Of a DNA stretch of 64,000 nt, positions 5,761-56,787 are shown piece after piece. Every line of letters starts with the position of its first letter. Within the stretch, counting starts at the first letter, position 1. The translations under genes and the position numbers were made by a program. The DNA comes from Xanthocytophaga flava (lineage in GTDB: Bacteria; Bacteroidota; Bacteroidia; Cytophagales; 172606-1), in the NCBI GenBank assembly GCA_030068525.1, contig JASJOS010000001.1, forward strand, positions 310,001-374,000, written 5' to 3'. The notes under the pieces are model-generated. The model was given only the letters and a program-made list of their open reading frames with translations, searched no databases and was not told the origin of the DNA.

Positions 5761-7170
5761 GTGACATTAATTACTTCGATTTCAGGAATCCGAGGAACTA
5801 TTGGAGGAAAGAGTGGAGGCTCACTAACCCCATCAGATGTGCTTAAATACACAGCTGCTTATGGAACCTGGATCAAAACACAAGCATCCGCTTCCAATAC
5901 CTTTAAAGTGGTAATTGGTCGGGATGCCAGACTTTCCGGCGAAATGATTTCCCGTATTGTATCATCCACATTGCAGGGATTAGGTATTGATATAGTAGAT
6001 GTTGGCTTGTCAACAACACCTACTGTAGAGATGGCGGTGGTTATGGAGAAAGCAAATGGAGGCATTATTATTACAGCCAGTCATAATCCCATTCAATGGA
6101 ACGCCCTTAAATTGTTAAATGAACAGGGAGAGTTCCTGTCAGCTTCTGATGGACAAACAATTATAAAACTTGCAGAAGAAAATGACTTTACCTATGCAGA
6201 GGTAAAAAAGCTGGGTAAGTATACAACAGACAATACATATCTGCAGAAACATATTGAAGCGATTCTAGCCTTGCCACTTGTCAACCGTGCTGCTATAGCA
6301 CAACGTGGATTTAATGTGGTGATAGATGCTGTGAACTCTTCAGGCGGTATTGCAGTTCCCATGTTACTGGATGCATTAGGAGTAAAGAAACGCACACTAA
6401 TCAATTGTGACCCTTCCGGAATATTTGCCCATAATCCGGAGCCTCTTCCCGAACACCTTATCCAGATTGCAGCCGAACTTGAAAAAGGTCGCTATGATTT
6501 AGGTATAGTAGTAGATCCGGATGTAGACAGGCTGGCTCTTATCTGTGAAGACGGAAGCATGTTTGGAGAGGAATATACATTGGTTGCTGTAGCTGACTAT
6601 ATACTAAAACATCATCCGGGAGGAAATACTGTTTCTAACCTGTCATCAACCCGTGCACTTCGGGATGTGACAGAACGATATGGTGGTCAACACTTTGCCG
6701 CTGCAGTAGGTGAGGTAAACGTGGTAACTGCCATGAAAGAATGTCAGTCTATTATTGGTGGAGAAGGTAATGGAGGGGTGATTTATCCAGCCTTGCATCA
6801 TGGACGGGATGGCCTGGTAGGTATTGCACTGTTTCTGAGCCATCTAGCAGAGTTTGGGTATTCTATTTCCAGACTACGTTCTACGTATCCGGATTATCAT
6901 ATATCTAAAAATAAGATTGAACTTACTCCTGATATCGATGTAGATGAGATCCTGGAGATGATCAAACAGAAATATGCAAAAAATCCTATCAATACAATAG
7001 ATGGTGTGAAGATAGAATTTGGTAAAGAATGGGTACATTTGCGTAAATCCAATACGGAACCTATCATTCGTATTTATTCAGAGTCAGATTCTCAGTCTAC
7101 AGCTGATTACCTGGCCAACAAGATTATTAGTGACATACGGGAACTGGTAGGCCAGCAGATCAGAACCTAA
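5761..7170 (+). CDS. glmM: Phosphoglucosamine mutase-type phosphohexomutase
   Basis: This alpha-D-phosphohexomutase probably converts glucosamine-6-phosphate to glucosamine-1-phosphate for UDP-GlcNAc, peptidoglycan and LPS synthesis. The start is GTG at 5761, giving 469 residues beginning T-L-I-T-S-I-S-G-I-R-G-T, the usual N-terminus of Bacteroidota homologues; upstream in-frame codons are unlikely to be translated. The active serine is Ser107 in T-A-S-H-N-P. The metal loop D-P-D-V-D-R-L-A and the sugar loop G-E-G-N-G-G are present. The C-terminal phosphate-binding segment has R-K-S-N-T-E-P-I-I-R-I-Y. Bacteroidota often annotate this group as GlmM, but phosphoglucomutase or phosphomannomutase activity cannot be excluded. 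The cysteine desulfurase starts 63 bases downstream. Confidence 0.88.
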   Translation: MTLITSISGIRGTIGGKSGGSLTPSDVLKYTAAYGTWIKTQASASNTFKVVIGRDARLSGEMISRIVSSTLQGLGIDIVDVGLSTTPTVEMAVVMEKANGGIIITASHNPIQWNALKLLNEQGEFLSASDGQTIIKLAEENDFTYAEVKKLGKYTTDNTYLQKHIEAILALPLVNRAAIAQRGFNVVIDAVNSSGGIAVPMLLDALGVKKRTLINCDPSGIFAHNPEPLPEHLIQIAAELEKGRYDLGIVVDPDVDRLALICEDGSMFGEEYTLVAVADYILKHHPGGNTVSNLSSTRALRDVTERYGGQHFAAAVGEVNVVTAMKECQSIIGGEGNGGVIYPALHHGRDGLVGIALFLSHLAEFGYSISRLRSTYPDYHISKNKIELTPDIDVDEILEMIKQKYAKNPINTIDGVKIEFGKEWVHLRKSNTEPIIRIYSESDSQSTADYLANKIISDIRELVGQQIRT

Positions 7171-46395: not shown

Positions 46396-48036
46396 ATGCG
46401 TATGACAAAATACTACACCCTTTTCTTTTTACTAGCCTTCACTGTATTTAGCAAAGTTAGAGCGCAAAATACATCTGTACCACTTGCGCCCTTTTATCAG
46501 AGTTATTTCAAGATAGCCGATAAACAGAAGGGATATATTATGGACTGGAACAAAAAAAATCAGAATGTGTATGGTAATACAGCGTATCATGGTAGCGACA
46601 ATCAAAAATGGCTGTTAATGCCTCTCAGTCCGGCCAGTGAGTATGCTGGATTTCTTATTGTAAATAAAGAGAATGGGAGTCTGCTGGACATCAATCAAAA
46701 AGATAACTTCTATGCATTTAACGGCTATACCAATGGTGGTAGTAGCCAACTGTTTGTACTAAACAAGGTACCACAAGCAGAGGGTTACTATTATATTAAC
46801 AACAGTAAAAATTCAAACAAGGTACTGGAAAGATCCAACTCCAAGGCTATCCTATCTCCTTTTAAACGTCTATCCAACCATAAAAACAATTATTATTTTG
46901 GTAAATTTACGGGTGGTGAAAACCAGCAATTTGCCTATACTGCAGTAGAGTCTATATCCTTTCCGTTTACATCTTACCGCCCTTTATCAGGTTCGACTAG
47001 CCCTCTTCCTCCACTCCCAGCCAACCCTACAGATATGGCAGGAACTGGCATGTGCACAGAATGTCCGGCTGTATTTTTAGGTGAAACACTGATACCTTTT
47101 CCATTTGTCCAAAATGACTTACCAAGAGCACAGCAGGTAAAATATTCTCCCTATTACCGATTAGAATATAGTCGCTATTGGAAACAGGCAGATAAACATA
47201 TGGTAGAAAAAGGAGAAACCTCTGTCAGAGAACTTGTTTACAATGCCGGAATGGCTGATGCCGATATGAAAGCAGTGGCAAAGATGTTGAATATAAGCTT
47301 TACCAGTAACTCAAACCTAGCTGAAAAAAAAGGTAACAAACAGAGCTCTTTGATTGCCCATACTATTGCTCAAGCATTTCTAAAAACAGAAATCGCCGTT
47401 ACTTCACACGAAGAAAACACCTATCAACCTGTAACAATAAAAGTAACCCACAAAGCCAACGAACAAACACTACTTATAAATTATCTGCTTATAGACAAAT
47501 ATGTTCTTTATAGGGCAGATGGAAGTAAAGCATTGGAGTGGGAAGTTACGTTGAGCCCTGGCTCTTATAGTGCTACGCTTGCATATGTTAACTCACAAAA
47601 GAAGGTATCAGCAACACTCCGAGCAATCACTCACAATTTTACTTTTGGGTATGTTAACTCATCAGGAGGCCGAGAAGAAGAGCATCCTCAGATAGAGATA
47701 AAACAGGAAGGTTCTACAGCTACTACTGTTTCTTCTCTTGACTCTGACAGGAAGGCTGGATTCTCGGTTTTGAATATATATCCCAATCCTTTTGAATCTG
47801 CAGCTCAGGTGGATATTTCCCTTTCAGAGGCTGCTCACATAAAAGCAGAAGTGTACAATCTATCAGGTCAAAAAGTGAAAGAAATCATCCAAACATCCGA
47901 TAGCGGAATAGCTTCTGTACAGATAGAAGGAGCAGGATTACAAGAGGGACTCTACATCATCAGACTGGAAGTAGTAGCCTTAAGCGACTCACGCAAAAAA
48001 TTAAACTACCAGCAGAAAGTAGTGTTAAAGAGATAA
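46396..48036 (+). CDS. Ricin-like lectin domain protein with type IX secretion sorting domain
   Basis: The 546-residue product has a signal peptide (F-T-V-F-S-K-V-R-A-Q), then a beta-trefoil-like region of about 160 residues with R-type lectin pattern (Q-N-V-Y-G-N-T-A-Y-H-G-S-D-N-Q-K-W, S-L-L-D-I-N-Q-K-D, G-G-E-N-Q-Q-F). The middle is of unknown fold. The last 80 residues are a type A T9SS sorting domain (L-N-I-Y-P-N-P-F, V-Y-N-L-S-G-Q-K-V-K-E-I, L-Q-E-G-L-Y-I-I-R-L, K-V-V-L-K-R). The protein is therefore probably secreted through the PorSS and either anchored or released. Confidence 0.88.
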   Translation: MRMTKYYTLFFLLAFTVFSKVRAQNTSVPLAPFYQSYFKIADKQKGYIMDWNKKNQNVYGNTAYHGSDNQKWLLMPLSPASEYAGFLIVNKENGSLLDINQKDNFYAFNGYTNGGSSQLFVLNKVPQAEGYYYINNSKNSNKVLERSNSKAILSPFKRLSNHKNNYYFGKFTGGENQQFAYTAVESISFPFTSYRPLSGSTSPLPPLPANPTDMAGTGMCTECPAVFLGETLIPFPFVQNDLPRAQQVKYSPYYRLEYSRYWKQADKHMVEKGETSVRELVYNAGMADADMKAVAKMLNISFTSNSNLAEKKGNKQSSLIAHTIAQAFLKTEIAVTSHEENTYQPVTIKVTHKANEQTLLINYLLIDKYVLYRADGSKALEWEVTLSPGSYSATLAYVNSQKKVSATLRAITHNFTFGYVNSSGGREEEHPQIEIKQEGSTATTVSSLDSDRKAGFSVLNIYPNPFESAAQVDISLSEAAHIKAEVYNLSGQKVKEIIQTSDSGIASVQIEGAGLQEGLYIIRLEVVALSDSRKKLNYQQKVVLKR

Positions 48037-48144: not shown

Positions 48145-48400
48145 TTATTTGGTGAGTTCTTTTTTTAGACCTTCCACAAACTCCTCAGTGACATCAAAGT
48201 AAGATGCCAGTTGTTGAGTCGTCAGCATACCATCTTTGAGAAATTTACGAATTGTCTCCGTTTTCTCTTCCCATTTACCTTCTTGCTTACCTTCCAGTCG
48301 TCCTTTCTTTTCGCCTCTTTTGAAAAGAATATCATCCTCTTCTTTTATGTATTTAGAAATAGAGTCAATCATCGTTTCAATATAGTCAGTTAGTTTATAA
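48145..48400 (-). pseudogene. Truncated Rpn family nuclease, C-terminal fragment
   Basis: A short frame of 75 codons from ATG 48372 corresponds to the C-terminal part of the complete gene at 52410-53249 (about two thirds identical: Y-I-K-E-E-D-D-I-L-F-K-R-G and L-T-T-Q-Q-L-A-S-Y-F-D-V-T-E-E-F-V). In-frame homology continues upstream only to K-L-T near 48400. The nuclease domain is missing, so it is a remnant, or a solo accessory tail. Confidence 0.7.
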
Positions 48401-49081: not shown

Positions 49082-49420
49082 ACTGTATATATTGTTTGGC
49101 AATACTTGTTTTACAATTTAAAGCTACTCCTCTATTTCTCCTTTTGTAAGGAATTTCCCTCTTGTTGTTCCAAAACCGACTTGCTTAAATCCTGCATCAG
49201 TAACTCAAAGTAGATAAAAGTAAGTCTACCCCGTGTTTTGAGCGTAGTTCTGATAATCAAAACAACGCTCAAAATCGCATTGTATAAATCTCCAATTTTG
49301 TCTCCATACTCTCAGCAGAATTTTCGCATAAATGGTCACTACAAAAGTATAGTGCAGGAAATCCGGAGCCTACGCATATGCTATCAGATCACTCTTATCT
49401 CTCTAATTTTTTCTAAACTA
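49082..49420. other. Intergenic leader of the helicase-primase gene
   Basis: No gene is seen. A 10-bp inverted repeat, TTTTGAGCGT at 49236-49245 with ACGCTCAAAA at 49265-49274, separated by 19 bases, could be an operator or an RNA hairpin. The helicase frame is open through much of this stretch, but the sequence there does not resemble the family. Confidence 0.4.
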
Positions 49421-50887
49421 ATGATAAAAAGTTCTCAAAAACCAAACAGCAAAGAAGAAGTCCGTAACCGGATACTGGCAGCAGCCAGTTCCCTTAAACA
49501 GCCAGTACCCCATCGTGAATTATTTGAAGAACTACTCGCTCAGGTGCCGCCTATCAATTTTAGCGAAGTGTCTGGCCTGGAGAAAGTCCCCTATGAACGC
49601 ATCGCTGTACTGGTATGTGAAAAGGTGGCTGAACTGGCACATAAAAATCGCTGGCAGATAGGGCATCGGGATGAGTTTTACTGGATATACAACAAATGCT
49701 TCTGGCAAAAGATAAGCGAACCGGAACTGGAATATTTTCTGGGAAAGGCAGCAGAACGAACAGGAGTTGAAGTGCTGAAAGCCAGAACATACGGTTATCA
49801 GGAAGTATTACGGAAACAGTTTGCGTCTACAGGTTATTTGCCCGAACTACCTCAGGAAGACTCCAATATCCGGATTAACCTACGCAATGGCACACTGCAT
49901 ATTGAACACGGCAAGGCTCAGCTACGTAATTTTAACCCGGACGACTTTCTGCGGTATCAGTTGCCGTTTTCGTATGATCCACAGGCGCAGGCACCACAAT
50001 GGCAGAAGTTTCTAAATGAGGTGCTTCCTGATGCTTCGCTGCAAAAGGTGCTTAGCGAAATGCTGGCTTATGTGTTTGTACCTTCCCAGGCTCTCAAACT
50101 GGAAAAATGTCTGTTTCTGTATGGTACTGGCAGCAATGGCAAGAGTGTGGTATTTGAAGTAATCTCGGCCTTGCTGGGGACTGAAAATGTGAGTAACTTC
50201 TCCATTACGTCCCTTACCGACCATACGGGATATTACAGGGCTTTACTGGCAGGCAAGCTGCTCAACTATGCCTCTGAGATTGGTGGTGAAATGGAAAGTT
50301 CGCTGTTTAAGCAACTTGTTTCAGGTGAGCCTATTGAGGCACGGCTTCCGTACAAAGAGCCGCAGATTATCCGCAACTATGCCAAGCTGATCTTCAATGC
50401 CAACAGCCTGCCGGATGTACCGGAGTTTACCCATGCCTTCTTCCGTCGGTTTGCCATCATTCCGTTTGAAGTCACCATCCCTGACCATAAGCAGGATCGG
50501 GATTTACCACAGCGTATCATTGCCACTGAATTGCCAGGCGTGCTCAACTGGATACTTGAAGGACTGCAACGCCTTACCCAGCAACGGGGTTTGTCGCCTT
50601 CTGAGAAGATGGCAAGCCAGATTTCCCGCTTCCGTCTGGAAAGCAACCCTGTGGCTGTTTTTATCTCTGAACGTATAGATGACTGCCGTCTGGAAAATGA
50701 CGTAAACGGCTGGATTTCTGTAGCGGATCTGTTCCAGGACTACACCTGCTGGACAGTAGAAAATGGCCATAAGAAGATGAGCAAACGCAAATTCTCTGAA
50801 CGGATGGAAGGGCTGGGGTATTCTAGAGATAGAAATGCACAAGGTTCTACTCGTATTTTCACAGGTCTCCGCCAAAAACTCGTCTAG
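49421..50887 (+). CDS. Phage/plasmid primase-helicase, D5/SF3 type
   Basis: ATG 49421 gives 488 residues. Residues about 80-200 look like the N-terminal D5-type domain. The SF3 helicase core has the Walker A motif G-T-G-S-N-G-K-S at 235-242, then Y-A-S-E-I-G-G-E and the F-N-A-N-S-L-P-D-V motif C region, with F-F-R-R-F-A-I-I-P-F after it. A winged helix may follow at the C-terminus. Such proteins unwind and prime replication origins of integrated or plasmid-like elements. The 50899-51156 structure starts 11 bases after the stop. Confidence 0.9.
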   Translation: MIKSSQKPNSKEEVRNRILAAASSLKQPVPHRELFEELLAQVPPINFSEVSGLEKVPYERIAVLVCEKVAELAHKNRWQIGHRDEFYWIYNKCFWQKISEPELEYFLGKAAERTGVEVLKARTYGYQEVLRKQFASTGYLPELPQEDSNIRINLRNGTLHIEHGKAQLRNFNPDDFLRYQLPFSYDPQAQAPQWQKFLNEVLPDASLQKVLSEMLAYVFVPSQALKLEKCLFLYGTGSNGKSVVFEVISALLGTENVSNFSITSLTDHTGYYRALLAGKLLNYASEIGGEMESSLFKQLVSGEPIEARLPYKEPQIIRNYAKLIFNANSLPDVPEFTHAFFRRFAIIPFEVTIPDHKQDRDLPQRIIATELPGVLNWILEGLQRLTQQRGLSPSEKMASQISRFRLESNPVAVFISERIDDCRLENDVNGWISVADLFQDYTCWTVENGHKKMSKRKFSERMEGLGYSRDRNAQGSTRIFTGLRQKLV

Positions 50888-50898
50888 TCAATCTTTCA

Positions 50899-51156
50899 CT
50901 GACACTTCTGACAGATCTGACAGATCTAAAAAACATTTTATAAAGGGGAGTAACCATGTAATTGACTTATCTGTTTGGTTAACAACGTTTTATAAAACAA
51001 GGATTATAGACACTGTGTATTCAGTCTGAACATGAAAGTCAATTTGAAAATTTTTAGCTAAAAAAATATGCTGTTTATCAAACACTTAAAGAATTATACT
51101 ACTCTATCCCTCTATAAAATGTTTTTTAGATCTGTCAGATCTGTCAGAAGCGTCAG
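50899..51156. repeat. Inverted-repeat structure with internal 9-bp tandem repeats, possible replication origin
   Basis: Arms 50899-50947 and 51108-51156 are 49 bases long and match as inverted repeats at 47 positions. Each arm has the tandem TCTGACAGA repeat (two full and one partial unit) beside an AT-rich TTTTATA-type block. The 160-base AT-rich spacer includes a GTTTTATAAAAC palindrome. The structure is enclosed between the helicase-primase and Toprim genes. By analogy with other SF3 primase systems it could be the recognition or origin region, but a foldback element cannot be ruled out. Confidence 0.6.
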
Positions 51157-51176
51157 AAACTCAACCTTGATATACT

Positions 51177-52334
51177 ATGCAAAACTATAGATACCAACTT
51201 AAACCTTATCGCAAACCTGCTGACAGACTTACCTGTCCCTCGTGTGGGGTTAAACGGGCTCTGGCTCCTTACTGGGATAATCAAACAGGAGAGATACTCA
51301 ATGAACAGGTTGGCAAGTGCAACCGCCTCGATACCTGTGGGTATCACTATCCGCCACGGGCTTACTTTCAGGACAACCCGGATCTGGCGACAATGCCACC
51401 AACCAGGCAATCCTTGCCAGAGAAGCCTCCTTCTATTCATAAACAAAAAATCTATTTGCCAGAGGAGGTAATTTATCCGGCCTTAAAGAGCCGATTTCGC
51501 AGCAAGAATACCTTCTGGCAGTATCTTTCAGAGAAGTATGGATTTGCCACGGCCAACGAGGCATTTGACCGCTATCGTCTGGGTACTTCCAATGCCTATC
51601 AGGGAGGCAGTACAATATTTCCGCTTTACGATGGCATAGGGTATGCTTCCGCCCAGATTATTAAAGTACATCCTGCCACCTGCAAAACCATCCGTTTTGC
51701 TCATGGACGGGCTACGACCTGGCTTCATAGTGTACTGGCTCAACAGTCAGAAACTACTGAGCCCTGGCTTACCACTTACATAGAACAAGCCGATAAGTAT
51801 CCGCATCCCTTTGGCTTACACTTAATTACCAGCCAACCTCATCAGGCTGTATGTATCGTAGAGTCGGCCAAGACGGCAGTGGTATGCTCTATCGAATACC
51901 CGGAGTTTTGCTGGATGGCCGTTGGAGCCCTCAGCTGGCTTAATGCTCAGCGACTGGCACCACTCCAGGATAGCAATCTGGTACTTATCCCCGATGGAGG
52001 CACAGGCACTCAGGAATGGACCACCAAAGCCACACTGCTACAACGTCAGGGATTCAGCATACAGGTAGCTGACTTAGACTTGCCTACTGGCGACGACCTG
52101 GCCGACCTGTCGTTTGCCATAACGGATACAGTAACGCCTATTCCTGTTCAGCCAGTATCTGCACCTGTTGATATGCCTATTATGCCAGCGTATTCAGAAG
52201 AAAATAACAGCTCTGTTCCACCCATATGCGATGAACGCAAGCTAGCCTTTGTCACTCAGCATGCTGAAATGATAGCCCTCACAGCCGATCTATTGGGAGT
52301 AGATCTGCAAACGGCTGTAATTAAGGAAATATAA
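51177..52334 (+). CDS. DUF6371-like Toprim protein with N-terminal zinc ribbon
   Basis: The 385-residue product begins with a zinc-ribbon-like cluster (C20-P-S-C23, C48 and C54 before G-Y-H-Y-P-P) and has a Toprim-like core containing V-C-I-V-E-S-A-K-T-A-V near residue 228 and L-I-P-D-G-G near 270. This layout is known in Bacteroidota mobile-element proteins described as DUF6371. It likely acts with the SF3 primase upstream in element replication, for example as the nucleic-acid-binding or primase-like subunit. Confidence 0.8.
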   Translation: MQNYRYQLKPYRKPADRLTCPSCGVKRALAPYWDNQTGEILNEQVGKCNRLDTCGYHYPPRAYFQDNPDLATMPPTRQSLPEKPPSIHKQKIYLPEEVIYPALKSRFRSKNTFWQYLSEKYGFATANEAFDRYRLGTSNAYQGGSTIFPLYDGIGYASAQIIKVHPATCKTIRFAHGRATTWLHSVLAQQSETTEPWLTTYIEQADKYPHPFGLHLITSQPHQAVCIVESAKTAVVCSIEYPEFCWMAVGALSWLNAQRLAPLQDSNLVLIPDGGTGTQEWTTKATLLQRQGFSIQVADLDLPTGDDLADLSFAITDTVTPIPVQPVSAPVDMPIMPAYSEENNSSVPPICDERKLAFVTQHAEMIALTADLLGVDLQTAVIKEI

Positions 52335-52409: not shown

Positions 52410-53249
52410 TTATTTATTCAAACTTTTACGAAGACCTTCCACAAACTCCTCAGTGACATCAAAGTAAGAGGCCAGTTGCTGAGTAGTCAGAATATTATCT
52501 TTCAGAAATTTGAGAATAGCCTCTGTTTTACCTTTTTGTTCGCCTTCCAGCTTACCTTCTTCTTTTCCTTTTAACTGACCTTTTTTAAACAGGAAATCGT
52601 CTTCTTCTCTGATATATTGAGATATGGATTCTATCATGATTTCTACAAAGGGTGTTAGTTTACGCAAGTTAGCCAATACGCGTAATTGTTGCAAGTGCCT
52701 TTCCCGTTCCAGCTGGCTGGGGGAGGTCTGGTTTAATCGTTGCACAATCAAGCCAGCAGCCTCTTCAGGAGTTGTATCCCCAAAATTACCCAATACAGCA
52801 AAAACAATCTCATCTCCTTTGTCCGAAGAGAGAAACAACTCATAATTAATCTGTGAAAGTTGAATCAGATAAAATGAAAAAATCAGATTTTCTTTTTCGA
52901 TACGGGTACTCATCTGAGGCACCTGATCCGATAAGAACAGTACATACTGACGTATATCCAAATCATATTTCCGGTTAAGAATGGCTCGATACTCCAGCAT
53001 CCTATCCACCATCTTATCCTCATCAGCAAGCTGGAATTCCAGTTGCAGCAAAAATGTATCCCCCTGCTTATCTGTGATCTTCAGCAACTGATCGGGCTTT
53101 CGCTCCAGAGTGCGCTGTAGTTCCTGAGGCATTTTCTCATAAGACGCCACCTGAATGTGAAGTACTTTTTCAATCAGAGCCAGGGTAACAGACTCCAGAT
53201 TTTCTTTGAATATCTTATCATACTGATTGCCTTCTTTCTTGGTACTCAT
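52410..53249 (-). CDS. Rpn family PD-(D/E)xK nuclease
   Basis: The 279-residue product has the PD-(D/E)xK arrangement of the Rpn family: D53 in K-P-D-Q-L-L-K-I and E71-F-Q73 (the E-x-Q/K motif) in L-Q-L-E-F-Q. After it come Y-V-L-F-L-S-D-Q-V-P and a glycine-rich E-G-K-L-E-G linker, then a C-terminal L-T-T-Q-Q-L-A-S-Y-F-D-V tail. Family members promote recombination and are often linked to mobile elements. A truncated copy of the tail lies 4 kb upstream in the window. Confidence 0.85.
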   Translation of the reverse strand: MSTKKEGNQYDKIFKENLESVTLALIEKVLHIQVASYEKMPQELQRTLERKPDQLLKITDKQGDTFLLQLEFQLADEDKMVDRMLEYRAILNRKYDLDIRQYVLFLSDQVPQMSTRIEKENLIFSFYLIQLSQINYELFLSSDKGDEIVFAVLGNFGDTTPEEAAGLIVQRLNQTSPSQLERERHLQQLRVLANLRKLTPFVEIMIESISQYIREEDDFLFKKGQLKGKEEGKLEGEQKGKTEAILKFLKDNILTTQQLASYFDVTEEFVEGLRKSLNK

Positions 53250-56635: not shown

Positions 56636-56787
56636 CTCCGTTTCTCTGTCCTTCTGAAAGAATCTTCTGGCAAGGTTAGCGGCCTTTACTTTTGGAGTGT
56701 TTTTTTCACAAACCAAACGCAACTCTATTTGTCACACCTGTCCTGCTAACGGCGGGAAGTTTCTTTAAGAAGGATAGGGAAACGGAG
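56636..56787. repeat. Hairpin mini-element, copy at 56.7 kb
   Basis: Arms 56636-56662 and 56761-56787 match at 24 of 27 positions. The inside carries the GCGGCCT and CGCAACTCTATTTGTCAC blocks seen in the other copies, plus an additional stretch of about 20 bases. The rest of the 56431-57020 gap shows no gene; TATATTCG at 56979-56986 is a weak -7 candidate for the next gene. Confidence 0.6.

What the first reader, a model, noticed from the sequence alone, without database searches (positions are those of the whole stretch)
50899..51156. Long inverted repeat with internal iteron-like repeats between helicase-primase and Toprim genes
The sequence shows two 49-base arms that match as inverted repeats at 47 positions. 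Each carries tandem TCTGACAGA units and a TATAAA-like block, with an AT-rich 160-base core. It sits exactly between the SF3 helicase-primase (49421-50887) and the zinc-ribbon Toprim gene (51177-52334). Iterons next to an SF3 primase are known origin architecture in phage P4-type systems; here the symmetry is unusually long. It could be a replication origin, an element-specific binding site, or a foldback insertion.
Basis: partly seen in the sequence, partly recalled or inferred. Interest (0 to 1): 0.75.

Follow-up and report, generated by a model that had tools for sequence, protein, structure and literature searches.

The report
Origin-like palindrome with chromosomal copies
A 258-base inverted repeat between a P4-type helicase gene and a primase gene has the layout of a mobile element's start-of-replication site, and old stand-alone copies of it sit elsewhere on the chromosomes of this bacterium and a sister species.

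Summary
In detail: 49-base arms, 47 of 49 complementary, each with 9-bp-period units and an AAAAAACATTTTATAAA block, around a 27% GC core, exactly between an SF3 helicase (NCBIfam 'phage/plasmid primase, P4 family') and a DnaG-like zinc-ribbon primase (DUF6371). The origin reading gains support: of 120 DUF6371 genes, 43 have 9-bp repeats just upstream (18 of 625 controls) and 35 a strong inverted repeat (22 of 625). The left arm aligns gap-free over 40 bases with the same spacer of a paralogous integrated element. PICI satellite origins have this layout. One solo copy carries the first 32 bases of the primase gene, so it came from a module. Arms covary (12 of 49 pairs changed on both sides). 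Copies in this genome are 88-93% alike, although orthologous-site copies in the sister species are 79% and 59% alike. Best reading: a P4/PICI-like iteron origin plus old chromosomal derivatives. Replication, the binding protein and the way the copies arose are untested.

The parts
50899..50947 (+). Left arm: three 9-bp-period units (50899-50925) followed by the AT block 50928-50944
   Evidence: aligns without gaps over 40 nt with the C55 and G002:C16 spacers, 0 of 2000 shuffles as good
50948..51107 (.). AT-rich core (26.9% GC), proposed melting region; related core in 5 of the 6 copies
51108..51156 (-). Right arm, inverted copy of the left arm; ends 20 bp before the primase ATG
49421..50887 (+). 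SF3 helicase of the P4 family (D5_N, DUF5906, Pox_D5)
51177..52334 (+). Zinc-ribbon plus DUF6371 protein, DnaG-type primase by predicted fold
51164..51208 (+). 45 bases (51177-51208 inside the primase gene) with a 35/45 match in the flank of the solo copy at G000:C62 and 36/45 at its ortholog G002:C21
   Evidence: C62: score 25, best of 2000 shuffles 18; C21: score 27, not shuffled
48166..48397 (-). 3' end of an Rpn-like gene, 88% identical to the gene at the orthologous G002 locus; left bracket of the inserted module
52410..53249 (-). Second Rpn-like gene (NCBIfam TIGR01784, 22.2 bits, below its cut-off of 52.1); right bracket
   Evidence: Pfam gave no match

Best explanation
The block is the iteron-type origin (initiator-binding array plus AT-rich melting region) of a P4/PICI-like replication module: SF3 helicase, origin, DnaG-like primase. 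Proposed working: an element protein (the SF3 helicase, the primase or a small DNA-binding partner) binds the two inverted sets of 9-bp units, the AT-rich core opens, the SF3 ring is loaded there and the primase made next door primes. In this genus the array exists in an expanded form (arms plus a 176-bp core between the AT blocks), and derivatives sit alone in chromosomal intergenic regions. At least one was copied from such a module, since it still carries the first bases of the primase gene. Shown by sequence: the array, its recurrence beside this primase family, homology of the arm to a paralogous spacer, the solo copies and two shared sites, arm covariation. Inferred: origin function, which protein binds, and how the copies arose (recombination or repair capture, then exchange between copies).
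For: P4-family SF3 helicase, 194.5 bits over a cut-off of 108.7, and DnaG-like fold of the primase. Inverted array 11 bp after the SF3 stop and 20 bp before the primase ATG. 9-bp repeats upstream of 43 of 120 DUF6371 genes against 18 of 625 intergenic controls (Fisher p 8e-24); inverted repeats of score 12 or more in 35 of 120 against 22 of 625 (p 4e-16). Left arm homologous to the C55 and G002:C16 spacers. Paralogous modules C55 and C60 have phage-type integrase and small terminase. Published PICI origins: two iteron sets flanking an AT-rich region, immediately 3' of the initiator gene (PMC6092414, passages). Three plasmids and one phage-like record have such an array before the gene.
Against: No replication or binding data. 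47 of 120 DUF6371 genes show neither kind of repeat, and only 15 of 38 viral-contig loci show one. The spacer of the closest-looking third paralog, C60, does not align significantly with the arm (139 of 2000 shuffles as good). In the surveyed loci the gap between arms is mostly under 55 bases (within the 120-base windows used), here 160. The window module has no integrase among seven neighbouring proteins scanned. Solo copies need a separate explanation.
Confidence: 0.55

Rival explanations
1. A MITE-like or foldback mobile element of about 254-269 bp with long terminal inverted repeats that inserted between the two genes; the other copies are its ordinary insertions.
For: Non-coding, intergenic, long inverted arms, three copies in each of two genomes; an allele without the core exists at G000:C33.
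Against: No target duplication that I could see in the six flanks (by eye). No further arm-bearing sequence, so no partner element with a transposase, in the exhaustively scored search of G000. REP-associated (Y1_Tnp) transposase genes: 0 of 2 genomes, with the control search positive in 5 of 14. The arm is homologous to a module spacer, and C62 carries primase sequence outside the arm. The C33 allele still contains the units, so it is not a clean empty site.
Confidence: 0.2
2. Each solo copy is the last remnant of a whole integrated module that decayed in place, leaving only its origin.
For: C62 and its ortholog C21 keep a piece of the primase 5' end. The C33 palindrome looks like a further internal deletion of the C10-type block.
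Against: Apart from that piece I saw no SF3 or primase sequence at the solo sites in the ORF lists (the primase search of G000 and G002, lists none there). The core in C62 is inverted relative to the primase piece, which needs an extra inversion. Decay to the same boundaries at three sites would be a coincidence unless the block is maintained.
Confidence: 0.15
3. A long RNA hairpin: the block works in transcripts as an RNase III site, an attenuator between the helicase and primase cistrons, or a 3'-end stabiliser at the solo sites.
For: Fold energy -99 and -104.5 kcal/mol on the two strands, z about -12; arm pairs covary, 12 of 49 changed on both sides, 0 of 500 shuffles; two solo sites lie between the ends of converging genes.
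Against: Covariation is expected equally of a DNA palindrome or of conversion between arms. The 9-bp periodicity and the recurrence beside primase genes have no role in this model. No Rfam family at its cut-off (one hit of 27.9 bits against 139.7).
Confidence: 0.1

Closest known systems
Origin of phage-inducible chromosomal islands (PICI/SaPI pri-rep-ori), PMC6092414, passages seen
   Same: [quoted passage not shown] primase in the same module; paralogous modules in this genome also carry integrase and small terminase genes
   Different: Perfectly mirrored 49-base arms, a separate DnaG-like primase downstream, no integrase found next to the window module, and stand-alone copies on the chromosome
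Satellite phage P4 origin/crr with the alpha helicase-primase (P4 details recalled, not looked up)
   Same: P4-family SF3 helicase (NCBIfam TIGR01613) next to short repeats in both orientations
   Different: Here the primase is a separate DnaG-type protein; unit sequence and spacing differ
Mobilizable Bacteroides units carrying an AAA ATPase and a DUF6371 gene, such as the cfxA-bearing unit in CP103138.1 (resemblance to Tn4555/NBU1 recalled; that Tn4555 carries cfxA is in a passage of PMC5704250)
   Same: Excisionase-type gene, ATPase, DUF6371 gene in that order, with an inverted TGTCCCA array just before the DUF6371 gene
   Different: RecA-like ATPase instead of an SF3 helicase; gap between arms 12-14 bases instead of 160
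MITEs and ERIC-type elements (review PMC10969869, passages)
   Same: Short, non-coding, intergenic, long inverted repeats, several copies
   Different: Only three copies per genome, no target duplication seen, arms homologous to a replication-module spacer
CGTC/GTAG REP palindromes and RAYT transposases (PMC3733652, passages)
   Same: Palindromic; the right arm ends in CGTCAG, which recalls the CGTC tag
   Different: Those are 20-40 bp and abundant; no Y1_Tnp gene found in G000 or G002

Membership tests
[quoted passage not shown]
   9-bp units in both arms, 26.9% GC core
PICI-type replication origin | Immediately 3' of the replication initiator gene | tested here: met
   Starts 11 bp after the stop of a P4-family SF3 helicase; that this protein is the initiator is inferred
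PICI-type replication origin | Module drives autonomous replication | not testable with these tools
   needs a plasmid maintenance test
PICI (whole element) | Integrase and attachment site at the element's end | tested here: not met
   No integrase among seven neighbouring proteins scanned, no tRNA in the window; paralogs C55 and C60 do have an integrase and Terminase_2
MITE | Long terminal inverted repeats, short, no coding capacity | tested here: met
   258 bp; longest open stretch in six frames 42 codons
MITE | Target-site duplication | tested here: inconclusive
   None seen by eye in six flanks, but at least two sites are shared by both species and so are old
MITE | Partner element with a transposase and matching ends | tested here: not met
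   Only three places match in G000, all 36 candidates scored; no Y1_Tnp genes; other transposase families not searched
P4-family SF3 helicase | Match to the family model above its cut-off | tested here: met
   TIGR01613 194.5 bits, cut-off 108.7
DnaG-type primase | Zinc ribbon plus TOPRIM catalytic fold | tested here: met
   Zn_ribbon_16; Foldseek to the E. coli DnaG core E 4.7e-5 but query TM only about 0.36; no PDB sequence match; activity not tested

The most novel reading that the evidence does not exclude
The stand-alone chromosomal copies are not debris but working targets: host-borne origin mimics that bind the element's initiator in trans (titration or incompatibility against the satellite, or sites where the initiator acts on the chromosome). 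They stay in step with the initiator's specificity where the module is present (G000: copies 88-93% alike, regular units) and drift where only a distant relative of it was found (G002: 77% between C21 and C10, 56-58% for C1).
Probability: 0.12. Interest if true: 0.85.

Novelty: new variant of a known kind. Interest (0 to 1): 0.6.

Why it matters
An inverted array of 9-bp units just before the DUF6371 primase gene recurs in Bacteroidota genomes, phage-like contigs and plasmids. It gives a sequence signature for the probable origin of a large and little-studied set of mobile replication modules. In the open-access library I found one paper naming DUF6371 (listing only) and, in the listings, none that appeared to describe this signature; subscription papers are not covered. 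Origin-derived solo copies kept at conserved chromosomal sites would be an unusual and testable link between a satellite-like replicon and its host.

Tried and rejected
Pattern scans: the arm with its AT block in genome contigs and a shorter form in viral contigs gave 0 hits; those collections may leave out this genome or very near ones.

Near matches of the arm core in 8 genomes (up to 2 mismatches): I read the contexts of 20 hits by eye and saw no second block of this kind. Short matches of the whole block in four distant genomes, five rows of 27-37 bases, were read; one of them (G056) is a small palindrome with CTGTCAG beside a gene that looks like a REP-associated transposase (recalled). 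That led to the REP/RAYT idea, tested in G000 and G002 and not supported (0 of 2 genomes).

Inverted core between orthologous copies C3 and G002 C1: both orientations tested, undecidable. The whole block as one long palindrome: suspected from the 70% self-match, dropped.

Are solo copies general? The arrays of G000:C2 and G303:C13 are single-copy where searched.

Rfam: one hit far below its cut-off, read as an effect of the hairpin.

Which protein binds: 30 SF3 (DUF5906) loci were examined for arrays at the gene's 3' end. A first script lost 15 loci to a strict filter and one to shortness, so I repeated it with a looser one: 27 analysed, 3 skipped, 15 of 27 have an array by either measure (2 of 4 with a zinc-ribbon-like ORF next, 13 of 23 without). 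Not decisive.

One search translated the SF3 gene one base out of frame; later calls used the right frame.

Full report
WHAT IS THERE. The inverted repeat is as described: arms 50899-50947 and 51108-51156, 47 of 49 complementary, 160 nt apart. Its score of 43 compares with at most 11 in 30 dinucleotide-preserving shuffles. Each arm holds units of period 9 and a block AAAAAACATTTTATAAA or its near-mirror. The core has 26.9% GC. The block begins 11 bp after the stop codon of the SF3 gene and ends 20 bp before the ATG of the next gene.

THE TWO GENES. The upstream protein has D5_N, DUF5906 and Pox_D5 domains and scores 194.5 bits against NCBIfam 'phage/plasmid primase, P4 family', cut-off 108.7. 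The downstream protein is a zinc ribbon plus DUF6371. Its AlphaFold2 model (42-sequence alignment, mean pLDDT 83.9) matches Twinkle and the E. coli and B. subtilis DnaG catalytic cores (best E 1.5e-5; query TM-scores only 0.3-0.4). No PDB sequence matches the family profile. I call it a DnaG-type primase by fold; activity is not shown.

COPIES WITHOUT THE GENES. In this genome (G000, 9.49 Mb, 63 contigs) the block occurs at three places: the window (C11), C62:179412-179675 and C3:145559-145824. Of 59 genomes searched as relatives (G000 included), 6 gave matches at E 0.001. G000 and G002 (same genus) hold whole or nearly whole blocks; the other four (G008, G021, G028, G056) have matches of 27-37 bases. 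G002 has three blocks: C21:145465, C10:250957 and C1:351179. The solo copies lie between ordinary genes: hydrolase and outer-membrane factor (C62, C21), SPFH protein and response regulator (C3, C1), decarboxylase-like and lectin-like genes (C10) (these names are my reading of the translations). C62/C21 and C3/C1 are orthologous sites. Of eight flank comparisons at 300 and 1,000 bases, seven gave 85-97% identity and one (C62/C21 left, 1,000 bases) gave 69%. The C10 site corresponds to G000:C33 near 507,120. There the core is missing, but a 35-bp imperfect palindrome with the same units remains, which I read as an internal deletion. On that reading all three solo sites predate the species split.

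THE WINDOW MODULE IS SPECIFIC TO THIS SPECIES. At the orthologous G002 locus (C2:407572-413636) window 45.15-52.41 kb has no counterpart, except that window 48166-48397 matches the 3' end of an Rpn-like gene there at 88%. In the window that gene end and a second Rpn-like gene (52410-53249, 73% to the G002 gene) bracket the module. G002 has one DUF6371 relative, C16, 35% identical to the window's.

WHERE THE BLOCK COMES FROM. G000 has three further DUF6371 genes (C55, C60, C2). In C55 and in G002:C16 the short spacer between SF3 and primase genes reads TGAC-units at period 9, then AAAAAAACATTTT, then the primase ATG. The window's left arm aligns with both over 40 nt without gaps; 0 of 2000 shuffles reach the score. 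With C60 it does not reach significance: 139 of 2000 shuffles do as well. I conclude that the arm is native to such modules. Next to the solo copy C62 lie 45 bases that match window 51164-51208, of which 51177-51208 are the first 32 bases of the primase gene, at 35 of 45 positions (score 25; best of 2000 shuffles 18). The ortholog C21 matches at 36 of 45. That solo copy therefore came from a module. Compared with the window, the core is inverted relative to this piece, so at least one inversion, easily made between the arms, has happened.

A LAYOUT SHARED ACROSS THE PHYLUM. DUF6371 was found in 41 of 395 genomes of the class. From 204 sequences given to the script I recovered 120 non-redundant upstream regions; the rest were duplicates, too near an end, contained N or lacked the zinc-ribbon pattern or start. 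Within 120 bp upstream, 9-bp repeats of score 8 or more occur in 43 of 120 against 18 of 625 intergenic controls from the same loci. Inverted repeats of score 12 or more occur in 35 of 120 against 22 of 625. One or other (inverted score 10 or more, or a 7-9-bp repeat) occurs in 73 of 120 against 81 of 625, so 47 of 120 have neither. The split is 58 of 82 genome loci and 15 of 38 viral-contig loci. Related loci are not independent, so the p-values (8e-24 and 4e-16) overstate the case. Unit sequences differ between elements. Three plasmid records and one phage-like record, whose gene start I guessed, also carry inverted arrays before the gene. The gene upstream was recognised as SF3 in 22, RecA-like in 11 and other in 87; arrays by a slightly different measure occur in 18, 5 and 61 of these. 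SF3 genes with no zinc-ribbon gene recognised next also have arrays in 13 of 23 cases, so the binding protein stays open. Two other arrays tested are single-copy in their genomes: solo copies are not the rule.

EVOLUTION OF THE COPIES. Over six copies, 12 of 49 arm pairs changed on both sides and 95.9% of cells stay paired; 0 of 500 shuffles do as well on either measure. Selection for a two-sided site, a hairpin, or conversion between arms would all give this, and related sequences inflate such counts. Window, C62 and C3 are 88-93% alike, yet C62 is only 79% like its ortholog C21, and C3 59% like its ortholog C1. Within G002, C21 and C10 are 77% alike, and C1 has a core of the same 176-base length that is no longer recognisably related. 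So copies in G000, which has the module, look homogenised; those in G002 do not. One genome each is an anecdote, not a test.

COMPARISON WITH KNOWN SYSTEMS. [quoted passage not shown] That is the anatomy here. Paralogous modules C55 and C60 carry a phage-type integrase and Terminase_2, as PICIs may; the window module shows no integrase among seven proteins scanned, so I do not file it as a PICI. PLE satellite origins also use iterons (PMC7145576, passages). MITE and REP features were compared with PMC10969869 and PMC3733652 (passages); no REP-associated transposase gene was found in G000 or G002.

VERDICT. An iteron-type origin block of a P4/PICI-like replication module in an expanded inverted form, with old chromosomal derivatives. 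Architecture and ancestry are shown by sequence; function, binder and copying mechanism are inferred.

Noticed in passing
window 56643-56736; L045 about 6250-6430: Short dispersed intergenic repeats with many copies in both species: 35 rows in G002 for the window stretch (some overlapping), and several dozen rows in G000 and G002 for the L045 stretch, often matching on both strands.
   Followed up: no
window 49198-49287: A repeat just upstream of the SF3 gene, with three matches in G002 (80 bases at 95%, 91 at 84%, 48 at 96%).
   Followed up: no
window 46396-48036: Secreted protein (T9SS sorting tail) with a ricin-type lectin domain and a Toxin_10 domain, inside the stretch absent from the orthologous G002 locus.
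   Followed up: no
L046 4880-5148: G002 copy with the same arms and a 176-base core that is no longer recognisably like the other five: arms conserved, core replaced or decayed at constant length.
   Followed up: partly
L309, L312, L313, L314 and L321, 3' ends of SF3 genes: Inverted arrays (for example GCGGCACTT units) also follow SF3 genes where no zinc-ribbon primase gene was recognised next.
   Followed up: partly
L298 (CP103138.1) 1046-1058 region and L299 (NZ_CP032820.1): Plasmid-borne units with integrase, excisionase-type gene, AAA ATPase and DUF6371 gene carry TGTCCCA inverted arrays, in L298 within the annotated end of the ATPase gene.
   Followed up: partly
L015 1501-1534 (G056:C41:28165-28198): A small CTGTCAG-containing palindrome, similar to part of the arm, near an ORF that looks like a REP-associated tyrosine transposase (recalled) in an order-level relative.
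   Followed up: partly
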